This document shows, piece after piece, positions 6,126 through 58,974 of a stretch of DNA of 64,000 nucleotides. The position numbers and the translations under genes are program-made. The stretch comes from Umezawaea tangerina (GTDB lineage: Bacteria > Actinomycetota > Actinomycetes > Mycobacteriales > Pseudonocardiaceae), in NCBI RefSeq assembly GCF_003002815.1, contig NZ_PVTF01000012.1:124001-188000 (forward strand), given 5' to 3'. Within the stretch, counting starts at the first letter, position 1, and each line of letters opens with the position of its first letter. The notes under the pieces are model-generated. The model was not told where the DNA came from, searched no databases, and saw only the letters and a program-made list of their open reading frames with translations.

Positions 6126-6220
6126 GTCCTCAAGCTTAGGACCAGTCGGGCGGTCCTCGCGCCGCGGTATCCCGGATGCTGAACGCGGTTTTTGTCGGTG
6201 GGACCTGTCATGGTGTGGGC

Positions 6221-8302
6221 ATGGACGAACTCGCCCTCCGGGAGCTGGCCGACGAGCGACTGCGGGCCCTCGCGGGTCCCGGAGCCGTGCTGCGCGACGA
6301 CCAGTGGACCGCGATCCACGCGCTGGTGGCGGAGCGCAGGCGCGCGCTGGTGGTGCAGCGCACAGGATGGGGCAAGTCGGCGGTGTACTTCATCGCGACC
6401 GCGTTGCTGCGCGAGCTGGGCGAGGGGCCGACGGTGATCGTGTCGCCGCTGCTCGCGCTGATGCGCAACCAGGTCGAGGCGGCGGCGCGGGCGGGCGTGC
6501 ACGCGATGACCATCAACTCCGCGAACACCGACGAGTGGCAGCACGTGCAGGACTCCGTGGCGGCGGGCGACGTCGACGTGCTGCTGGTGTCGCCGGAGCG
6601 GTTGAACAACCCCGACTTCCGGGACAACGTGCTGCCGTCGCTGACCGCGTCGGCCGGGCTGCTCGTGGTGGACGAGGCGCACTGCATCTCGGACTGGGGC
6701 CACGACTTCCGGCCGGACTACCGGCGGCTGCGGACGCTGTTGACGGAGCTGCCGTCCGGGGTGCCGGTGCTCGCGACGACGGCGACGGCGAACGACCGGG
6801 TGGTGCGCGACGTGGCCGAGCAGCTGGGGCTCGGCTCGGGGTCGGACGCGCTGGTGCTGCGCGGGCCGCTGGACCGGGAGAGCCTGCGGCTGGCGGCGGT
6901 GCGGCTGCCGACGGCCGAGGCGCGGCTGGCGTGGCTCGGCGAGCGGCTGGCGCAGCTGCCGGGGTCGGGGATCATCTACGCGCTGACCGTGGCGGCGGCG
7001 GACGACGTGGCGGCGTTCCTGCGGGAGCGCGGGTACGAGGTGACGGCGTACTCGGGACGGACGGACCCGACGGAGCGGCAGCGGTCCGAGGAGGACCTGC
7101 TGGCGAACCGGGTGAAGGCGCTGGTGGCGACCTCCGCGCTGGGCATGGGGTTCGACAAGCCCGACCTGGGGTTCGTGGTGCACCTCGGCGCGCCCCCCTC
7201 CCCCATCGCGTACTACCAGCAGATCGGCCGTGCGGGCCGTGGCGTCGAACGGGCCGACGTGCTGCTGCTGCCGGGCCCGGAGGACAAGGACATCTGGGCG
7301 TACTTCGCGTCGCTGGCGTTCCCGCCGGAACGGGTGGTGCGGCAGGTGCTCGCGGCGTTGGCGGACGCCGGGCGGGTGTTGTCGACGGCCGCGTTGGAGC
7401 CGATGGTCGAGCTGTCGCGCAACCGGCTCGAGGTGGTGCTGAAGGTGCTCGACGTCGACGGCGCGGTGAAGCGGGTGCGCGGCGGGTGGGAGTCGACGGG
7501 GCAGGAGTGGTCCTACGACGCGGAGCGGTACGACCGCATCGGCGAGGCCCGGCAGGTCGAGCAGCAGGCGATGCTGGACTACCTGGGCACGTCCGGCTGC
7601 CGGATGGAGTTCCTGCTGCGGCAACTCGACGACCCGAGCGCGAAGCCCTGCGGGCGGTGCGACAACTGCACCGGCGAACGTGTTTCCGCCGAGGTGTCGT
7701 CGGGAGCGGCCACGGTCGCGCGCGAACGGCTGATGCGGCCGGGCGTGGACGTGGCGCCGCGCAAGCTGTGGCCGAGCGGGATGGCGGCGCTCGGCGTGCC
7801 GTTGTCGGGCAAGATCGCCGCGGGCGAGTCGGCGGAGGCCGGGCGGGCGTTGGGGCGGCTGACCGACATCGGGTGGGGCAACAGGCTGCGGGCGCTGTTC
7901 GCGGCCGACGACCAGCCGATCCCGGACGACGTGTTCCAGGCCTGCGTGAAGGTGCTGAGCTCGTGGGGCTGGGCGGAACGGCCGGTCGGGGTGGTGACCG
8001 TGGGATCGCGGAGCAGGCCGTCGCTGGTGGGGAGCTTCGGTGAGCGCATCTCGGAGATCGGGAGGCTGCCGTTGCTGGGGCAGGTGTGGGTGGGAGAGGC
8101 GACGCACCGGGCGAACAGCGCTCAGCGGTTGGCGGGACTGTGGAACGGGGTGCGGGTGCCGGATCTGTCCGATGTGGACGGGCCGGTGCTGTTGATCGAT
8201 GATCGGATCGATACGGGGTGGACTATGACTGTGGCGGGGAGGGCGTTGAGGAAGGCGGGGGCGGGGGCGGTGTTGCCGTTTGCTTTGGCGGTGACGACGT
8301 AG
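6221..8302 (+). CDS. RecQ family DNA helicase with C-terminal phosphoribosyltransferase-like domain
   Basis: 693-residue ATP-dependent helicase. Walker A (TGWGKS, Lys52), the DEAH box at 151-154 ([20 protein letters not shown]), motif III (ATTATAN) and motif VI (QQIGRAGRG) are intact, giving a 3'-5' SF2 helicase core over residues 15-340. A zinc-binding segment follows (SGCRMEF...CGRCDNC) near 460-485. Instead of an HRDC domain, the C-terminus ends in a phosphoribosyltransferase-like fold with a PRPP-loop-like segment [13 protein letters not shown] near residue 655, resembling ComF-type domains. The start ATG 6221 is preferred over one 15 codons upstream because family similarity begins there. 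It is divergent from proA. The role is presumed DNA repair or recombination. Confidence 0.9.
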
Positions 8303-8306
8303 GGGG

Positions 8307-8408
8307 CACCCCGGTCGCCGAGTGTTCTATGGTTGCCGCCCCTTGTCAAGACGATAGGGCTGTCTTGACAAGGGGCGGCAACCATAGAGATGGCTTCTTG
8401 TCGGGGTG
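8307..8408. repeat. 102-bp palindromic element, copy 1
   Basis: The element begins CACCCCG and ends CGGGGTG, and contains a perfect 27-base inverted repeat (arms 8326-8352 and 8362-8388) around a 9-base loop (GATAGGGCT). It starts four bases after the recQ stop. A second copy of exactly the same length is at 56687-56788 with the same ends, loop frame and conserved blocks (CGCCGAGTGTTCTA, TTGTCAAGAC, AGAGATGGCTTC). It could be a small non-autonomous mobile element that also serves as a strong transcription terminator. No target duplication is evident. Confidence 0.85.
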
Positions 8409-8790
8409 CGTGGGGGAAGGGTGGGTTTCGGGGGCATCAGGCTGCGCCTGACAGGGCATCCTCGGCTTCGCCGTTGGACCAGGCATCCTTGCTGCGCTGC
8501 GGACAAGGCCCCAGGCGCTCCGCGCCGGATGCGCGCTGGCGGGCTGCGCCCGACGACGGATCCTCGGCTGCGCCATCGGACACTGCATCCTCGGCTTCGC
8601 CGTTGGACAGGGAAGGCATCCTCGCTGCGCGTCGGACACTGCATCCTCGGCTGCGCCGTCGGACAGGGCATCGGCTGGCGCCGAGTGGGCAGTCTTGCTT
8701 CGCTTCGGACCATGCGGTGGGGCGCTTCGCGCCGGATGCGAGGTTGCGGGCTTTGCCCGCTCCACTCGGTGGTCTCGGGCGGATCTGGTG
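8409..8790. repeat. Hairpin-rich degenerate repeat tract after copy 1
   Basis: There is no credible gene here. A degenerate unit of about 24-30 bases, close to CATCCTCGGCTGCGCCG followed by TCGGACA, recurs at least five times between about 8455 and 8670. It is interspersed with tiny hairpins of the type GGGCTGCGCCC, GGCGCTTCGCGCC and GCGGGCTTTGCCCGC. Open frames crossing it are repetitive and lack family similarity. Confidence 0.7.
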
Positions 8791-8811
8791 GTGTCGGCTG
8801 AATGGGGGTGG

Positions 8812-9516
8812 GTGGTGTTGGAGCAGCGGTTGGTTGGTGGGTTTGTGAACGAGGTTGTGCGTGTTGGGGACACGGTGCGCAGGGCGGGGGTGGGTGGGTT
8901 TGCGCATCGGGTGTTGGAGCACTTGGAGGGGTGGGGTGGTGCGCCGCGGTTGTTGGGGGTGGATTCGCGGGGGCGGGAGGTGTTGGAGTTTTTGGATGGG
9001 CATGTGGCGTGGGAGCGCGAGCAGCCTGGCGCGGTGGGGTCGGAGGAGAGTCTTGCGGTGGTTGCGCGGTTGGTGCGTGAGTTCCACGATTTGACCGTGG
9101 GGCTGGCAGGCGAAGCGGAAGTGGTTTGTCACAACGATCTTTCGCCCAAGAACACGGTCTACCGGGATTTGGGCGAGGGGTTGAGGCCGGTGGCGTTCAT
9201 CGATTGGGACGGGGCGGCGCCGGGTCGGCGGGTGCAGGACGTGGCGCATGTGTGTTGGCAGTACACGGGGATGGGGCCCGGTGCGGAGGTCGGGGTGGTG
9301 GCGCGGGGGATTCGGGTGATCTGCGAGGCGTACGGGCTTGATGACCGGGGTGAGCTGGTGGACACGATCCTGTGGTGGCAGGACCGGTGTTGGCGCGGGA
9401 TCGTCGCGGATGAGGGGCCGGCCGGGGTGCGGTTGCGGGCGGCGGGGGTGGTGGAGGGGGTTCAGGAGACGTACGCGTGGGTGGTGGAGCACCGGGGTGA
9501 GTTGGAGCCGGGGTGA
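8812..9516 (+). CDS. Aminoglycoside phosphotransferase-family (APH/choline kinase fold) protein
   Basis: 234-residue small-molecule kinase-like protein. The Brenner motif CHNDLSPKNTVY (catalytic Asp near residue 108) and the metal-binding FIDWDGA segment are intact, and it lacks eukaryotic-type kinase extensions. This fold phosphorylates hydroxyls of small molecules; the substrate is unknown and antibiotic resistance should not be assumed. The start is uncertain: GTG 8812 is chosen by similarity (the family usually begins close to LVGGFVNEVVRVG), with GTG 8791 and 8815 possible and no clear ribosome site. The coding strand is strikingly G-rich (GGG, GTG and TTG codons) compared with flanking genes, suggesting recent transfer or local mutational bias. 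The MHS transporter follows 105 bases later. Confidence 0.8.
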   Translation: MVLEQRLVGGFVNEVVRVGDTVRRAGVGGFAHRVLEHLEGWGGAPRLLGVDSRGREVLEFLDGHVAWEREQPGAVGSEESLAVVARLVREFHDLTVGLAGEAEVVCHNDLSPKNTVYRDLGEGLRPVAFIDWDGAAPGRRVQDVAHVCWQYTGMGPGAEVGVVARGIRVICEAYGLDDRGELVDTILWWQDRCWRGIVADEGPAGVRLRAAGVVEGVQETYAWVVEHRGELEPG

Positions 9517-9621
9517 TCGGGCAGACCTGAGTTGGTCGTGAGGGATCCCAAGAGCCGGCACAGCGAAGCGGTGGTGAGCGGGAGCCTGGTCAGTGGGGCT
9601 GGGCTGTGGGATGGTCCGAAG

Positions 9622-55503: not shown

Positions 55504-56601
55504 TTGAGACGGAACAGACTTGCCCTGCTCGCGACCGCACTGCTGGCACTCCTGGCGGTCCTGGCACCACCGGCCGCGGCGGACGCACCCGAGTGCGGGA
55601 CCGACGGGCGGATGAAGCGGTTCGAGTGCGGCCCCACCGCCGCCGCGACCGAGGTCTACGGCTGGGTGTGGGCCAACGAGCCAGCCCACCTGACCGGCGA
55701 GTGGTACTCGCCCAGTGCCCGCTACCAGTTCAGCTCGGTGACCGGCGGCCCGACGAACTGGGTGCGGCACGAAGGCGTCGGCACGTACACGGTGTACATC
55801 GACGGCGCCCCCGGCACGGGTGTCGCCCACGCGTCCGCGTACGGCTGGAACGTGCGGGCGCGCTGCAAGGTGACCACCACGTCGTCGTCCGGAGCGGGGC
55901 GGTACGTGGTCGTCCGGTGCTACTCGTTCGACGGGGCGTTGGTGGACAGCATGTTCACGGCCTCCTACACCTCCGTGCGCGGCCGCGACTACCGGTACGG
56001 GTACCGGTCGGCGGTCAACGGGGTGGTGACCGAGCACAACTCGTCCACCGGGGCTGTTAACTACGCCCACACGGCCGTCGGGTCGTACCTGGTGTCGTTC
56101 AAGAACCTCGGCGGGGCATCGGGTGGGACGGTGCAGGTGACCGCCACCGGGCAGACGAACGTGTGGTGCAAGACCGCTGGGTGGTACCCGGACGCGATCT
56201 TCTACAACGTGCGGGTCATGTGCTTCACGCCGGCCGGAAGCCCGGCTGACAGCGAGTTCGGGGTGACGTTCGTCGACAAGGGCAACATCGTCGGCGACAA
56301 GAACCCGAGCCTGGGGCTGGAATCGGGGTACGCGTGGGTGATGGCCACGCGGACGGCGCCCGATCCATGGGCGTTTCCAGCGTCGCCTGCGTGGGCGGTG
56401 ACGGGGTCTGCGGGGGTGTACGTGGTGGATCCGGCTGTGGTTGTCGACGGGGGGAGTTTTCAGGTGACGGCGTACGACACGTCGGCGAACTCGTGCGTGA
56501 TCGGTGGGTGGGGTGCTGCGGTGGTTGTGCAGTGTTATGACGTGGGAGGGGTGTTGGCGGAGTCGTTCTTCGACGTGGCTTATGTGGGGAAGCGGGTGTG
56601 A
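55504..56601 (+). CDS. Secreted protein with three Cys-containing repeats, TTG start
   Basis: 365-residue exported protein of unrecognised family. The signal peptide is LRRNRLALLATALLALLAVLAPPAAADA (residues 1-28). A repeated module of about 80-100 residues occurs three times, each with a Cys about 15-25 residues before a VVVRCY/VRVMCF/VVVQCY strand and a G-x-(L/P)-x-(D/E)S-x-F ending. The paired Cys imply one disulfide per repeat. Aromatic-rich strands suggest a beta-sandwich adhesin, lectin or cell-wall-binding protein. TTG 55504 is chosen because GGAGG lies four bases upstream. It is probably controlled by the divergent TPR-SARP regulator. The 102-bp palindromic element follows 85 bases after the stop. 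Confidence 0.8.
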   Translation: MRRNRLALLATALLALLAVLAPPAAADAPECGTDGRMKRFECGPTAAATEVYGWVWANEPAHLTGEWYSPSARYQFSSVTGGPTNWVRHEGVGTYTVYIDGAPGTGVAHASAYGWNVRARCKVTTTSSSGAGRYVVVRCYSFDGALVDSMFTASYTSVRGRDYRYGYRSAVNGVVTEHNSSTGAVNYAHTAVGSYLVSFKNLGGASGGTVQVTATGQTNVWCKTAGWYPDAIFYNVRVMCFTPAGSPADSEFGVTFVDKGNIVGDKNPSLGLESGYAWVMATRTAPDPWAFPASPAWAVTGSAGVYVVDPAVVVDGGSFQVTAYDTSANSCVIGGWGAAVVVQCYDVGGVLAESFFDVAYVGKRV

Positions 56602-56686
56602 CGGCCGGGGCTGGCTCGGGTTCGGTGGGTGCGGGGTAAGGCGGGCTGCGTTTGCGTCGGGCTCGCGGGTTTCGGGAACATGCCTC

Positions 56687-56788
56687 CACCCCGCTCGCCG
56701 AGTGTTCTAGACCCGCCATTGCTTGTCAAGACGATAAAGCTGTCTTGACAAGCAATGGCGTGCCCAGAGATGGCTTCGGATCGGGGTG
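56687..56788. repeat. 102-bp palindromic element, copy 2
   Basis: It has the same CACCCCG...CGGGGTG ends and the same 102-base length as 8307-8408. The inner inverted repeat is 19 bases perfect (56714-56732 and 56742-56760) around a 9-base loop (GATAAAGCT). Arms differ from copy 1 at compensating positions, so pairing is kept. It lies downstream of a plus-strand gene and directly before a repeat tract, as copy 1 does. Confidence 0.85.
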
Positions 56789-57453
56789 CAGGGGTAGGTC
56801 TGGCTACGCCAGCATCGGGCTGCGCCCGACAAAGCACCCTACTGCGGCCAGTACTGGCTCCATGCCAGGCCAGGCTTTGCCCCAACCCTCCCCAGCTCCT
56901 TGGCCCACCCAGGCCTGGTGGCGCACTTGACCCGCCCGCCCAGACCTGGCCCGGCTGGTGCGCTTGGCCTGGCTGCCCAGGCATGGCTCAGCTTGGTGCA
57001 CTTGACCCGCAGGCCCAAGCGTGGCTCGGCCTGGTGCGCTTGGCCCGCCCAAGGCGTGACCCCGCTTGGTCTCCAGACGCCGCCACACCCAGGCGTGGCT
57101 CGATCCCTCCGAACCCGTCCCTTCCCGGCCCTCCCGGCCCGCGTCCCGTCCCGGGCCGGGCCGAACTCGCCCCTCCCCTCTCACCCGTCCCAACCCGAAC
57201 CAACACCCAGCCCACCCCAGCCCGGCCCGGCACCCAACGCGGCCCAGCCCAGCGCCCGGCCCGGCGCGCGGCTCAGCACCCGGCCAGCCCGGCGCGCGGC
57301 TCAGCCCGCCCGACGCGACTCAATCCACCTCACCCAGCGTGGCTCGGCTTCCACCCCCACTCCCACCCCACCCGGCCCCCACCCCGACCCACCCCGGCGC
57401 CACCCGAACCAATCCCGTGGCGGCCGACGGTCCGCCGCGGTCTGGTCCGGGTG
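56789..57453. repeat. Low-complexity tract with 37-38-bp tandem repeats
   Basis: No credible gene is present. Between 56904 and 57049 a unit of 37-38 bases (GCCCAGGC-TGGC-C-GC-TGGTGC-CTTG-CC pattern) is repeated about four times. Beyond it, 57050-57400 is C-rich with CCCGGCC/GCGCGGCTCAGC motifs repeated irregularly. Long frames through it are Pro/Arg-rich artefacts. The minus-strand FAD enzyme ends at 57454. Confidence 0.65.
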
Positions 57454-58974
57454 TCAGGGGTGGAGGTGGTTGAGGACGGCCATGGCGGCGTTGTGGCCGG
57501 GGATGCCGCTGACGCCGCCGCCGCGGCGGGCGCCGGCTGCGCAGAGGAAGAGGTTCGGGGTGTCGGTTTCCACGCCCCAGGTGCCGATTTCGGCGTCGGT
57601 TTCGGCGAATGGCCAGGAGAGGTCGCCGTGGAAGATGTTGCCGCGGGGCATGGTCAGTTCGGCCTCCAGGTCGAGTGGGGTGCGGGCCTCGATGCAGGGA
57701 TTGCCGTTGGTGTCGGTGGCAAGGCAGGTTTCGATGGGGTCGACCAGGTGGGTGTTGAGGGCGGTCAGGTAGCGGGTGACGAGGGTGTCGCGGAGTTGGT
57801 CGTTGCGGCCTTCGAACAAGGCCGCGGGGAGGTGGAGGCCGAAGAGGGTGAGGGCTTGGTAGCCCTCCAGTGAGGGGTCGAGGATGGTGGGGTCGGTGAG
57901 GGAGTGGCAGTACATCTCGCCGGGCAGGACGGAGGGGACGGCGCCCGCCGCGCTTTCCGCGTACGCCCGCTCCAACTGGCTGTAGGACTCGTCCAGGTGG
58001 AACGTGCCCGCGAACGCGAGGGTGGGGTCGACGCCGGACTTCAGGCGGGGCAGCTTGGTGAGGAGCATGTTGATCTTCAGTTGGCAGCCCTCGCCGCGTG
58101 GCACGACCTCCTTCCCCCGCAACGAGTCCAGCACCGCCGGTGCGACGCCCGCGAGTACGGAACGGGACCTGACGAACCGGCCGTCGAACGTCACCTCGCC
58201 GGTGGTGCCGTCGGCCGACACGCGGGTCACCTCGGCGCCGGTGACGAAGTCGACGCCCGCCTCGGTCGCGACCCGGAACAGCTCGGCGGTGACCGCGCCC
58301 ATGCCGCCGACGGGCACGCGCCACTCCCCCGTGCCGTTGCCGATCACGTGGTAGAGGAAGCAGCGGTTCGCCAGCAGGTCCGGCGAACGCAGGGACGTGT
58401 GGGTGCCGATGAGGCCGTCGGTGGCGACGACACCGCGCACGACGTCGTCGGTGAACAGCTCCTCCAACGTCGTGCCGAGCGGCTGCTCGAACACCTGCGG
58501 CCACACCGGACCCGCCAGCTCGCGGAAACGCGCCCGTGAGACCAACGGCTCCAGCATGGTGGGCGCCACCGCGGCCGCCAGCTCGTCGAGGGACGCGTAC
58601 CAGGCCCGCCACCGGTCCCAGGCCTCGTCCGAGCCGGTGAGGGCGCGGAACGACCCGACCGTGTCCGGACCGGGCACGCGCTCGACCAGCAGCCCGCCGG
58701 TGCCGGCGGCCGTGTACGACGAGGCGGCGCGCGACCGGAGCTCCAGCCGCAGGCCCAGGTCGGCGACGATCCGGTCCGGCAGCAGGCTCACCAGGTAGGA
58801 GAACCGCGATAGGCGCGCGGGAACACCGGGGAACGGCGAGGCGCTGACCGCCGCGCCGCCGACCTGGCCGAGCTTCTCGACCACGAGCACCGACCGACCG
58901 GCCTTGGCCAGGTACGTCGCCGCCACCAGCGCGTTGTGCCCGCCACCAACCACCACGACGTCATAGGAGTCCAC
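57454..58974 (-). CDS. FAD-dependent amine oxidase/phytoene-desaturase-like oxidoreductase
   Basis: 506-residue flavoprotein of the NAD(P)/FAD-dependent oxidoreductase superfamily. The dinucleotide-binding motif YDVVVVGGGHNALVAATYLAKAGRSVLVVEK is at residues 4-34, and a C-terminal FAD-closing motif CAAGARRGGGVSGIPGHNAAMAV is at about 480-500. The variant GGGHNALVAA places it in the crtI-like 'FAD-dependent oxidoreductase' group rather than monooxygenases; the substrate is unknown. No carotenoid genes are nearby. ATG 58974 is preceded after nine bases by a small hydrophobic frame. Confidence 0.9.
   Translation of the reverse strand: MDSYDVVVVGGGHNALVAATYLAKAGRSVLVVEKLGQVGGAAVSASPFPGVPARLSRFSYLVSLLPDRIVADLGLRLELRSRAASSYTAAGTGGLLVERVPGPDTVGSFRALTGSDEAWDRWRAWYASLDELAAAVAPTMLEPLVSRARFRELAGPVWPQVFEQPLGTTLEELFTDDVVRGVVATDGLIGTHTSLRSPDLLANRCFLYHVIGNGTGEWRVPVGGMGAVTAELFRVATEAGVDFVTGAEVTRVSADGTTGEVTFDGRFVRSRSVLAGVAPAVLDSLRGKEVVPRGEGCQLKINMLLTKLPRLKSGVDPTLAFAGTFHLDESYSQLERAYAESAAGAVPSVLPGEMYCHSLTDPTILDPSLEGYQALTLFGLHLPAALFEGRNDQLRDTLVTRYLTALNTHLVDPIETCLATDTNGNPCIEARTPLDLEAELTMPRGNIFHGDLSWPFAETDAEIGTWGVETDTPNLFLCAAGARRGGGVSGIPGHNAAMAVLNHLHP

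What the first reader, a model, noticed from the sequence alone, without database searches (positions are those of the whole stretch)
8307..8408. New 102-bp palindromic element family (copy 1), paired with 56687-56788
Two elements 48 kb apart are both exactly 102 bp, share CACCCCG/CGGGGTG ends, the TTGTCAAGAC inner stem and a 9-base GATA-GCT loop frame, while their arms differ with compensating changes. Such covariation implies selection on pairing. Each lies just after a plus-strand gene and is followed by a repeat tract. This looks like an uncatalogued MITE/REP-type element or a class of very strong terminators.
Basis: partly seen in the sequence, partly recalled or inferred. Interest (0 to 1): 0.75.

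Follow-up and report, generated by a model that had tools for sequence, protein, structure and literature searches.

The report
Self-overwriting DNA hairpins with one-strand mutation
A large family of roughly 100-base DNA hairpins lying between genes in soil actinobacteria keeps its places and directions while its sequence is overwritten, and most copies examined sit at the centre of a zone about a kilobase wide where cytosines on one particular DNA strand have been mutated away.

Summary
The two 102-bp elements belong to a family of about 131 scored places in this genome (a lower bound; 44 close copies), shared with two sister species, Amycolatopsis and five other genera (72 of 390 family genomes; none of 395 others drawn from the phylum).

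Arms covary almost only as Watson-Crick pairs (1267 of 1320 cells; 7 G-U, 46 mismatches): pairing is kept at DNA level.

New: (1) copy 1 arrived with its repeat tract as one ~510-bp insertion; two sister species have the empty site. (2) In a 398-kb region, 13 of 17 elements have a G002 counterpart, all 13 in the same orientation, yet their arms differ nearly as much as between unrelated copies: they are overwritten. (3) Most copies centre a loss of cytosine (C>T, C>G) on the element's own strand, on both flanks, whatever the neighbouring gene's direction, seen on the branch carrying the element (copy 1: C 74/287, G 19/456, p=8e-18; sister lineage 12/225, 43/480). None of 42 ordinary hairpins shows it.

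No Y1 transposase or reverse transcriptase was found in this genome. Best guess: a sequence-specific factor opens a one-strand gap, repaired by copying another element and by error-prone filling. That mechanism is inferred.

The parts
8307..8408 (+). Copy 1, 102-bp hairpin element
8343..8371 (+). Copy 1 conserved core TTGTCAAGAC-loop-GTCTTGACAA
8329..8342 (+). Copy 1 variable 5' arm; its partner arm is 8372-8385
   Evidence: read from the sequence and pair table
8304..8813 (+). About 510-bp insertion (hairpin plus array) absent from G001 and G002; ends uncertain by a few bases
8440..8790 (+). Array of small hairpins behind copy 1; limits by eye
7703..8303 (+). Upstream mutation zone of copy 1 (3' part of RecQ/ComF-like gene 6176-8302)
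8820..9420 (+). Downstream mutation zone of copy 1 (next gene, to about 9516)
56687..56788 (+). Copy 2, 102-bp hairpin element (arms imperfect at the outer end)
56723..56751 (+). Copy 2 conserved core
56400..56686 (+). Upstream C-poor flank of copy 2 (composition only, no ortholog in G002)
57454..58200 (+). Downstream mutation zone of copy 2: C lost on the + strand inside a minus-strand gene (57454-58974)

Best explanation
SHOWN: a dispersed, directional, non-coding DNA element (about 102-bp hairpin; in this genus followed by a small-hairpin array) of Pseudonocardiaceae that (a) can appear at a new site as one ~0.5-kb unit, (b) keeps site and orientation between species while its sequence is overwritten by other, again palindromic, versions, and (c) in most copies lies at the centre of a zone, up to about 1.5 kb long, in which C on the element's strand is replaced by T or G. 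INFERRED: a sequence-specific factor recognises the conserved core (TTGTCAAGRC-loop-GYCTTGACAA), which has a direction because the loop is asymmetric. It nicks or removes the opposite strand and leaves the element's strand single-stranded over the element and both flanks. The exposed element folds into its hairpin. The gap is filled error-prone, or exposed C is deaminated, giving C>T and C>G on one strand; within the element it is often repaired by copying another genomic copy, which overwrites it. Pairing stays near perfect because whole palindromes are copied or one arm templates the other; RNA selection is not needed. The factor, the nick and the polymerase are unidentified.
For: Empty sites in G001 and G002 at copy 1. 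Same orientation in 13 of 13 matched pairs, element identity 0.775 between pairs against 0.91 to the best paralogue in either genome, arm distance 6.5 of 12 against 7.0 for unrelated pairs, flank identity 0.91. GC skew in element direction falls from 0.50 to 0 over about 1.1 kb upstream in 37 copies; 19 lower-scoring own copies, 7 G002 and 7 G001 copies agree. Polarised substitutions: copy 1 p=8e-18, copy 2 p=5e-14, no such excess in the G002 lineage; three own-only elements pooled C 268/2272 against G 98/2357; two G002-only elements, G002 branch C 164/859 against G 35/921 and C 135/901 against G 45/932. Zone sign independent of gene strand and of chromosome side. 0 of 42 ordinary hairpins, against 60 of 80 elements of the genus by the same rule. 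G-U pairs not enriched.
Against: No factor, nick or single-stranded DNA has been seen. C>T and C>G together do not identify one enzyme. Some elements show no excess: C4:116233 (own branch C 10, G 28; shared 45, 68), C4:138433 and C4:249793 on the own branch. Elements do not explain all such signals: in contig C12 10 of 16 clusters with |skew|>0.4 are not beside an element, and C>T asymmetry without a core-type element occurs at 116750, 120300, 210350 and 223700. Perfect or imperfect arms made no difference to flank skew. By the strict rule (both 0-300 bp bins above 0.2) only 18 of 63 own elements pass, because the array lies in the downstream bin. In other genera the zone is weaker (8 of 28 by the rule; upstream skew positive in 25 of 28). 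If most loss is on the insertion branch, it may be an insertion scar rather than a lasting activity.
Confidence: 0.45

Rival explanations
1. Transcription runs through the element in its own direction and forms long R-loops; the displaced non-template strand is deaminated. The hairpin would be a pause or processing site.
For: C loss on one strand on both sides fits a process running through; the G-rich strand would favour R-loops; elements lie in gene gaps, mostly convergent or tandem ones.
Against: Zone sign is the same whether the upstream gene runs toward (20 of 20) or away (18 of 18), and 27 of 27 measured downstream minus-strand genes lose C on their template strand. No promoter-like site by the sigma-70 scan in 8250-8900. 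Does not explain overwriting.
Confidence: 0.2
2. A MITE-like transposon moved by an unidentified transposase; the mutation zone is a scar of insertion (error-prone repair of the insertion gap), and overwriting is ordinary gene conversion among copies.
For: Clean ~510-bp insertion; for shared elements the C excess is mostly on the ancestral branch, for example 233 C against 23 G at C4:340280 (this branch is polarised by G001 alone).
Against: Excess continues after the split at some shared elements (C4:254898 own branch C 44 G 8; G002 3588286 branch C 88 G 30). No clear target duplication was seen at copy 1 and no orphan ends or autonomous copy (32 of 32 3'-end hits lie at full copies).
Confidence: 0.25
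3. Two-way transcription terminators or mRNA 3'-end structures kept by RNA selection.
For: None of 57 copies lies inside a called gene; of 56 with two called neighbours, 28 are convergent and 5 divergent; very stable hairpins.
Against: No T-run after copy 1's hairpin (the scan allows loops of 3-8 only); G-U pairs not enriched; does not explain the zone or overwriting. Avoidance of promoters alone could give the gene context.
Confidence: 0.07
4. A mutagenic reverse transcriptase (diversity-generating-retroelement-like) copies the region through RNA with errors at one base.
For: One-base-type, one-strand substitution resembles the A-directed pattern of such retroelements (recalled).
Against: No RVT_1 (PF00078) match in this genome; G001 has 1, G002 9, G011 2. 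No template repeat was seen. G-U scarcity argues for DNA-level copying.
Confidence: 0.03

Closest known systems
ERIC and other MITE-like intergenic palindromes of bacteria
   Same: About 100-130 bp, single long hairpin, intergenic, dispersed, inverted ends (ERIC length and fold: passages of PMC2267715).
   Different: No sequence relation tested or known; near-total two-sided arm variation, overwriting at fixed sites and a one-strand mutation zone are not features of ERIC as far as I recall.
REP / TnpA-REP (RAYT) systems
   Same: High-copy palindromes with arrays of small hairpins.
   Different: REPs are 20-40 bp (abstract of PMC3733652) and tied to a Y1 transposase (abstract of PMC8266576), which is absent here.
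Kataegis: break-associated same-strand C mutation showers in yeast and cancer
   Same: Same-strand substitutions at C:G pairs clustered over about a kilobase (abstract of PMC3628087).
   Different: There AID/APOBEC deaminases act at scattered breaks; here a fixed, directional bacterial DNA element marks the centre and no deaminase was sought or identified.
Diversity-generating retroelements
   Same: Localized, base-directed, strand-specific change near a structured DNA element (recalled).
   Different: No reverse transcriptase in this genome, no template repeat seen, no known benefit.

Membership tests
MITE (non-autonomous inverted-repeat transposon) | Short, non-coding, terminal inverted repeats, many copies | tested here: met
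   102 bp, CACCCCG/CGGGGTG ends, 41 to about 131 places
MITE (non-autonomous inverted-repeat transposon) | Insertion at new sites with empty sites in relatives | tested here: met
   copy 1 against G001 and G002; C12:98676 about 463 bp against about 83 in G002
MITE (non-autonomous inverted-repeat transposon) | Target-site duplication | tested here: inconclusive
   junctions at copy 1 are G-rich and ambiguous
MITE (non-autonomous inverted-repeat transposon) | Autonomous parent sharing the ends | tested here: inconclusive
   32 3'-end hits in this genome all at full copies; other genomes and other classes not scanned this way
REP / TnpA-REP | Cognate Y1 transposase (PF01797) in the genome | tested here: not met
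   no match at E<=0.001 in G000, G001, G002, G011
REP / TnpA-REP | 20-40 bp hairpin with GTAG-type foot | tested here: not met
   102-bp hairpin; ends CACCCCG
Intrinsic terminator | Stem followed by T-run | tested here: not met
   none after copy 1's hairpin; other copies judged only from printed flanks
Structured RNA family | Pairing kept with G-U intermediates | tested here: not met
   7 G-U of 1320 cells against 46 other mismatches
Structured RNA family | Match to a described Rfam family | tested here: not met
   0 matches at gathering score in the window
Diversity-generating retroelement | Reverse transcriptase in the genome | tested here: not met
   no RVT_1 match in G000
Kataegis-type mutation cluster | Clustered same-strand C changes | tested here: met
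Kataegis-type mutation cluster | Cytosine deaminase acting on single-stranded DNA | not tested
   no deaminase search or wet assay was run

The most novel reading that the evidence does not exclude
A dedicated, sequence-specific bacterial system acts at these hairpins to open one chromosomal strand, producing both self-overwriting by conversion and programmed one-strand cytosine hypermutation of neighbouring genes: a non-coding chromosomal mark that sets a directional mutation field, without reverse transcriptase or known transposase.
Probability: 0.3. Interest if true: 0.95.

Novelty: new variant of a known kind. Interest (0 to 1): 0.83.

Why it matters
Intergenic palindromes are usually treated as passive. 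These leave a measurable, directional mutation field on adjacent genes and are rewritten in place, so they would be fixed, repeated sites of strand-specific DNA processing on bacterial chromosomes. That makes a mutation-clustering process testable in culturable actinobacteria and gives a handle on an unknown nuclease or repair pathway. It also affects gene prediction near elements (the gene at about 8822-9516 was missed by my codon-bias caller) and warns that compensating changes in palindromes need not mean RNA structure.

Tried and rejected
Terminator, RNA-family, TnpA-REP and reverse-transcriptase readings were tested and rejected or weakened. Replication direction as cause of the strand bias: 22 + and 23 - copies in G002 with no split point separating the strands (smallest uncorrected p 0.19). 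Neighbour-gene transcription as cause: not supported. Any strong hairpin as cause: 0 of 42 hairpins with stem 16 or more. A symmetric double-strand break with resection both ways should flip the strand across the break; both flanks have the same sign. A cytosine sequence context was looked for at two loci; none stood out. Viral contigs hold no exact match to one core pattern. Contig C12 3000-3300, a strong C-loss signal, lies in an 8.5-kb gene, probably a polyketide synthase by its read sequence, and was set aside as likely module conversion. An autonomous parent was sought in this genome and not found.

Dropped or incomplete: 38 of the 44 close copies were analysed for gene context and skew by neighbour; 37 entered the skew profile; of 20 fetched lower-scoring copies 19 were used (L078 lies too near a contig end). 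In one search, 3 of 17 own elements had no three-way alignable flank. In one search the own-side map of C4:97555 was caught by a paralogous element (G002 3501317); flanking blocks place it at 3363598, which one search used, and make 3501317 a G002-only element. G002 3580555 had no G002-side map and was paired from the own side. In one search, 3 of 21 loci showed no core at that setting. Searches scored at most 10 candidates a genome with strict filters, so absence there is not proof.

Full report
WHAT IS THERE. The two elements are as described. The core pattern occurs twice in the window and in none of 100 shuffles; both strands fold far better than shuffles. blastn in the same genome (10.7 Mb, 34 contigs) gives 41 full-length copies. 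A covariance model built from 31 copies lists 150 rows, of which 19 are the opposite strand of places already listed (counted by eye): about 131 places, 44 of them at 85 bits or more. This is a lower bound. All 32 hits of the 3' end pattern lie at full copies.

WHERE ELSE. Both other species held from the genus carry many copies. In the family, 72 of 390 genomes match at E<=1e-6, from 7 of 46 genera: 3 genomes of the own genus, 53 of g16, 10 of g46, 2 of g41, 2 of g15, 1 of g5, 1 of g10 (split by genus counted by eye). g16 is Amycolatopsis: G152 is 100% identical, at the same coordinates, to the named record Amycolatopsis sp. 2-2. Of 396 genomes drawn from the phylum only the own genome matched. 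Elements in other genera keep the plan: variable arms around TTGTCAAGGC-GGGAAAGAT-GCCTTGACAA, or GTGTCAAGGC with a 10-base loop.

COVARIATION. In 110 distinct elements, 12 arm positions give 1320 cells: 1267 Watson-Crick, 7 G-U, 46 other mismatches; 81 distinct 5' arms; 89 elements with all 12 pairs Watson-Crick. If non-Watson-Crick cells were random, 1 in 6 would be G-U (about 9 of 53); 7 were seen. Selection on RNA pairing should leave more G-U intermediates. I read the pairing as a property of the DNA.

INSERTION. In G002 and G001 the stop codon of the RecQ/ComF-like gene abuts the next gene; the own genome has about 510 bp between them, hairpin plus array. At C12:98676 the own genome has 463 bp where G002 has about 83, and the first part of the array matches that of copy 1. 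So in these class members the array travels with the hairpin. In C12, clusters of at least 3 small-hairpin motifs occur only behind two of the four elements.

OVERWRITING. In own C4 45-443 kb, G002 3309-3709 kb and G001 contig C6, 17, 15 and 7 elements were found. Thirteen of the 17 own elements have an element at the matching place in G002, all 13 in the same orientation (1 in 8192 by chance). Element identity between these pairs averages 0.775, against 0.91 to the best paralogue in either genome and 0.71 to unrelated elements of the other species. Arm distance is 6.5 of 12 against 7.0 for unrelated pairs; flank identity is 0.91. Two own elements have a G001 counterpart in the same orientation, again with other arms. 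So places are old and sequences are replaced, nearly always by palindromes.

MUTATION ZONE. In the window every 300-bp step with |GC skew| above 0.3 lies at 7950-9600 or 56400-57900; at 57150-57300, behind copy 2, the sign is reversed. In 37 copies turned to the element's direction GC skew falls from 0.50 beside the element to 0 at about 1.1 kb upstream, and downstream, beyond the array, from 0.3 to 0.07 by 1.5 kb; 19 lower-scoring copies, 7 of G002 and 7 of G001 agree. Control genes have 0.013, sd 0.12 (3' ends, coding strand, n=235). By one rule applied to both, 0 of 42 other hairpins and 60 of 80 elements of the genus pass (own 45 of 63, G002 8 of 10, G001 7 of 7); with both bins next to the element, 0 of 42 and 30 of 80. 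In other genera 8 of 28 pass. Upstream sign is positive in 20 of 20 with a toward-facing gene and 18 of 18 with an away-facing gene; measured inside called genes only, 19 of 20, 8 of 10 and, downstream minus-strand genes, 27 of 27. In G002 22 copies are + and 23 -, without side bias. In contig C12 6 of 16 clusters with |skew|>0.4 lie at the four elements and 10 do not; several C>T-asymmetric places have no core-type element.

POLARITY. Where G001 and G002 agree, own-lineage changes within 600 bp of copy 1 are C 74/287, G 19/456, A 3/118, T 1/143 (p=8e-18; C>T 40, G>A 4; C>G 28, G>C 5); the G002 lineage at the same sites has C 12/225, G 43/480. Far from copy 1 the own lineage has C 11/346, G 25/536. 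Copy 2, inside a minus-strand gene: C 67/237, G 5/189 (p=5e-14); G002 lineage 7/177 and 9/193. Three own-only elements pooled: C 268/2272, G 98/2357 (p=2e-22; C4:257248 alone is weak, 45 against 30). G002-only 3563067: G002 branch C 164/859, G 35/921, own branch 26 and 35. Background over the region: C 3028/101772, G 3551/100974. G002-only 3501317: G002 branch C 135/901, G 45/932, own branch 27 and 37; its shared branch also has 101 against 36, so an older element lost from the own lineage is possible. C loss in own-only elements falls from about 0.3 to about 0.03 within 0.3 kb upstream and 1.5 kb downstream, while G stays between 0.00 and 0.10. At elements shared by own and G002 but not seen in G001 the excess is mostly on the ancestral branch (for example 233 C against 23 G at C4:340280; polarised by G001 alone), with a later excess at some (C4:254898 own branch 44 against 8) and none at others (C4:116233).

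HOW IT MAY WORK. Same-strand loss on both flanks, centred on the element and set by its direction, fits single-stranded exposure of the element's strand across the site. Ordinary hairpins do not do it, so the conserved core is probably read by a factor. Overwriting by other copies fits repair of that lesion from another copy. The nick, the factor, the choice between deamination and error-prone filling, and any benefit to the cell are inferred or unknown. An insertion scar and R-loops are the main rivals.

LITERATURE. Ten searches of the held open-access library listed no title or abstract describing this family or such a zone. Passages of PMC2267715 were read; a word search in PMC3733652 found none of six actinobacterial names; PMC8266576 and PMC3628087 were seen only as listings with the start of the abstract. 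Most subscription papers and all preprints are outside that library.

Noticed in passing
8440-8790 and arrays behind other copies: Small hairpins of the type GCA-TCNNGGC-TNC-GCCNNGA-C also vary in both arms together, the same pattern at a smaller scale.
   Followed up: partly
8822-9516: The gene behind copy 1 has lost so many C that a codon-bias gene caller missed it; third codon positions changed most (33 of 60 C; 12 of 49 and 7 of 34 at the others).
   Followed up: partly
57150-57320: Between copy 2's array and the next gene the strand bias is reversed (skew to -0.44); unexplained.
   Followed up: no
G002 chromosome (11.79 Mb): The 45 higher-scoring copies lie between 2.01 and 8.92 Mb, none in the outer parts.
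   Followed up: partly
Contig C12 116750-117050, 120300-120450, 210350, 223700 (window = C12 124001-188000): One-strand C>T excess in the own genome without a core-type element; lost elements, other element families or another cause.
   Followed up: no
L220-L222 (G002 7.28-7.33 Mb): Several other very long perfect hairpins (stems 20-29, some sharing an AAACCG loop) without flank skew: another hairpin family.
   Followed up: no
L252 (G002 3522.8-3524.1 kb): Where the own genome has the C4:257249 element, G002 has about 1.3 kb of other sequence that looks like a TnpB-type gene (judged by eye).
   Followed up: no
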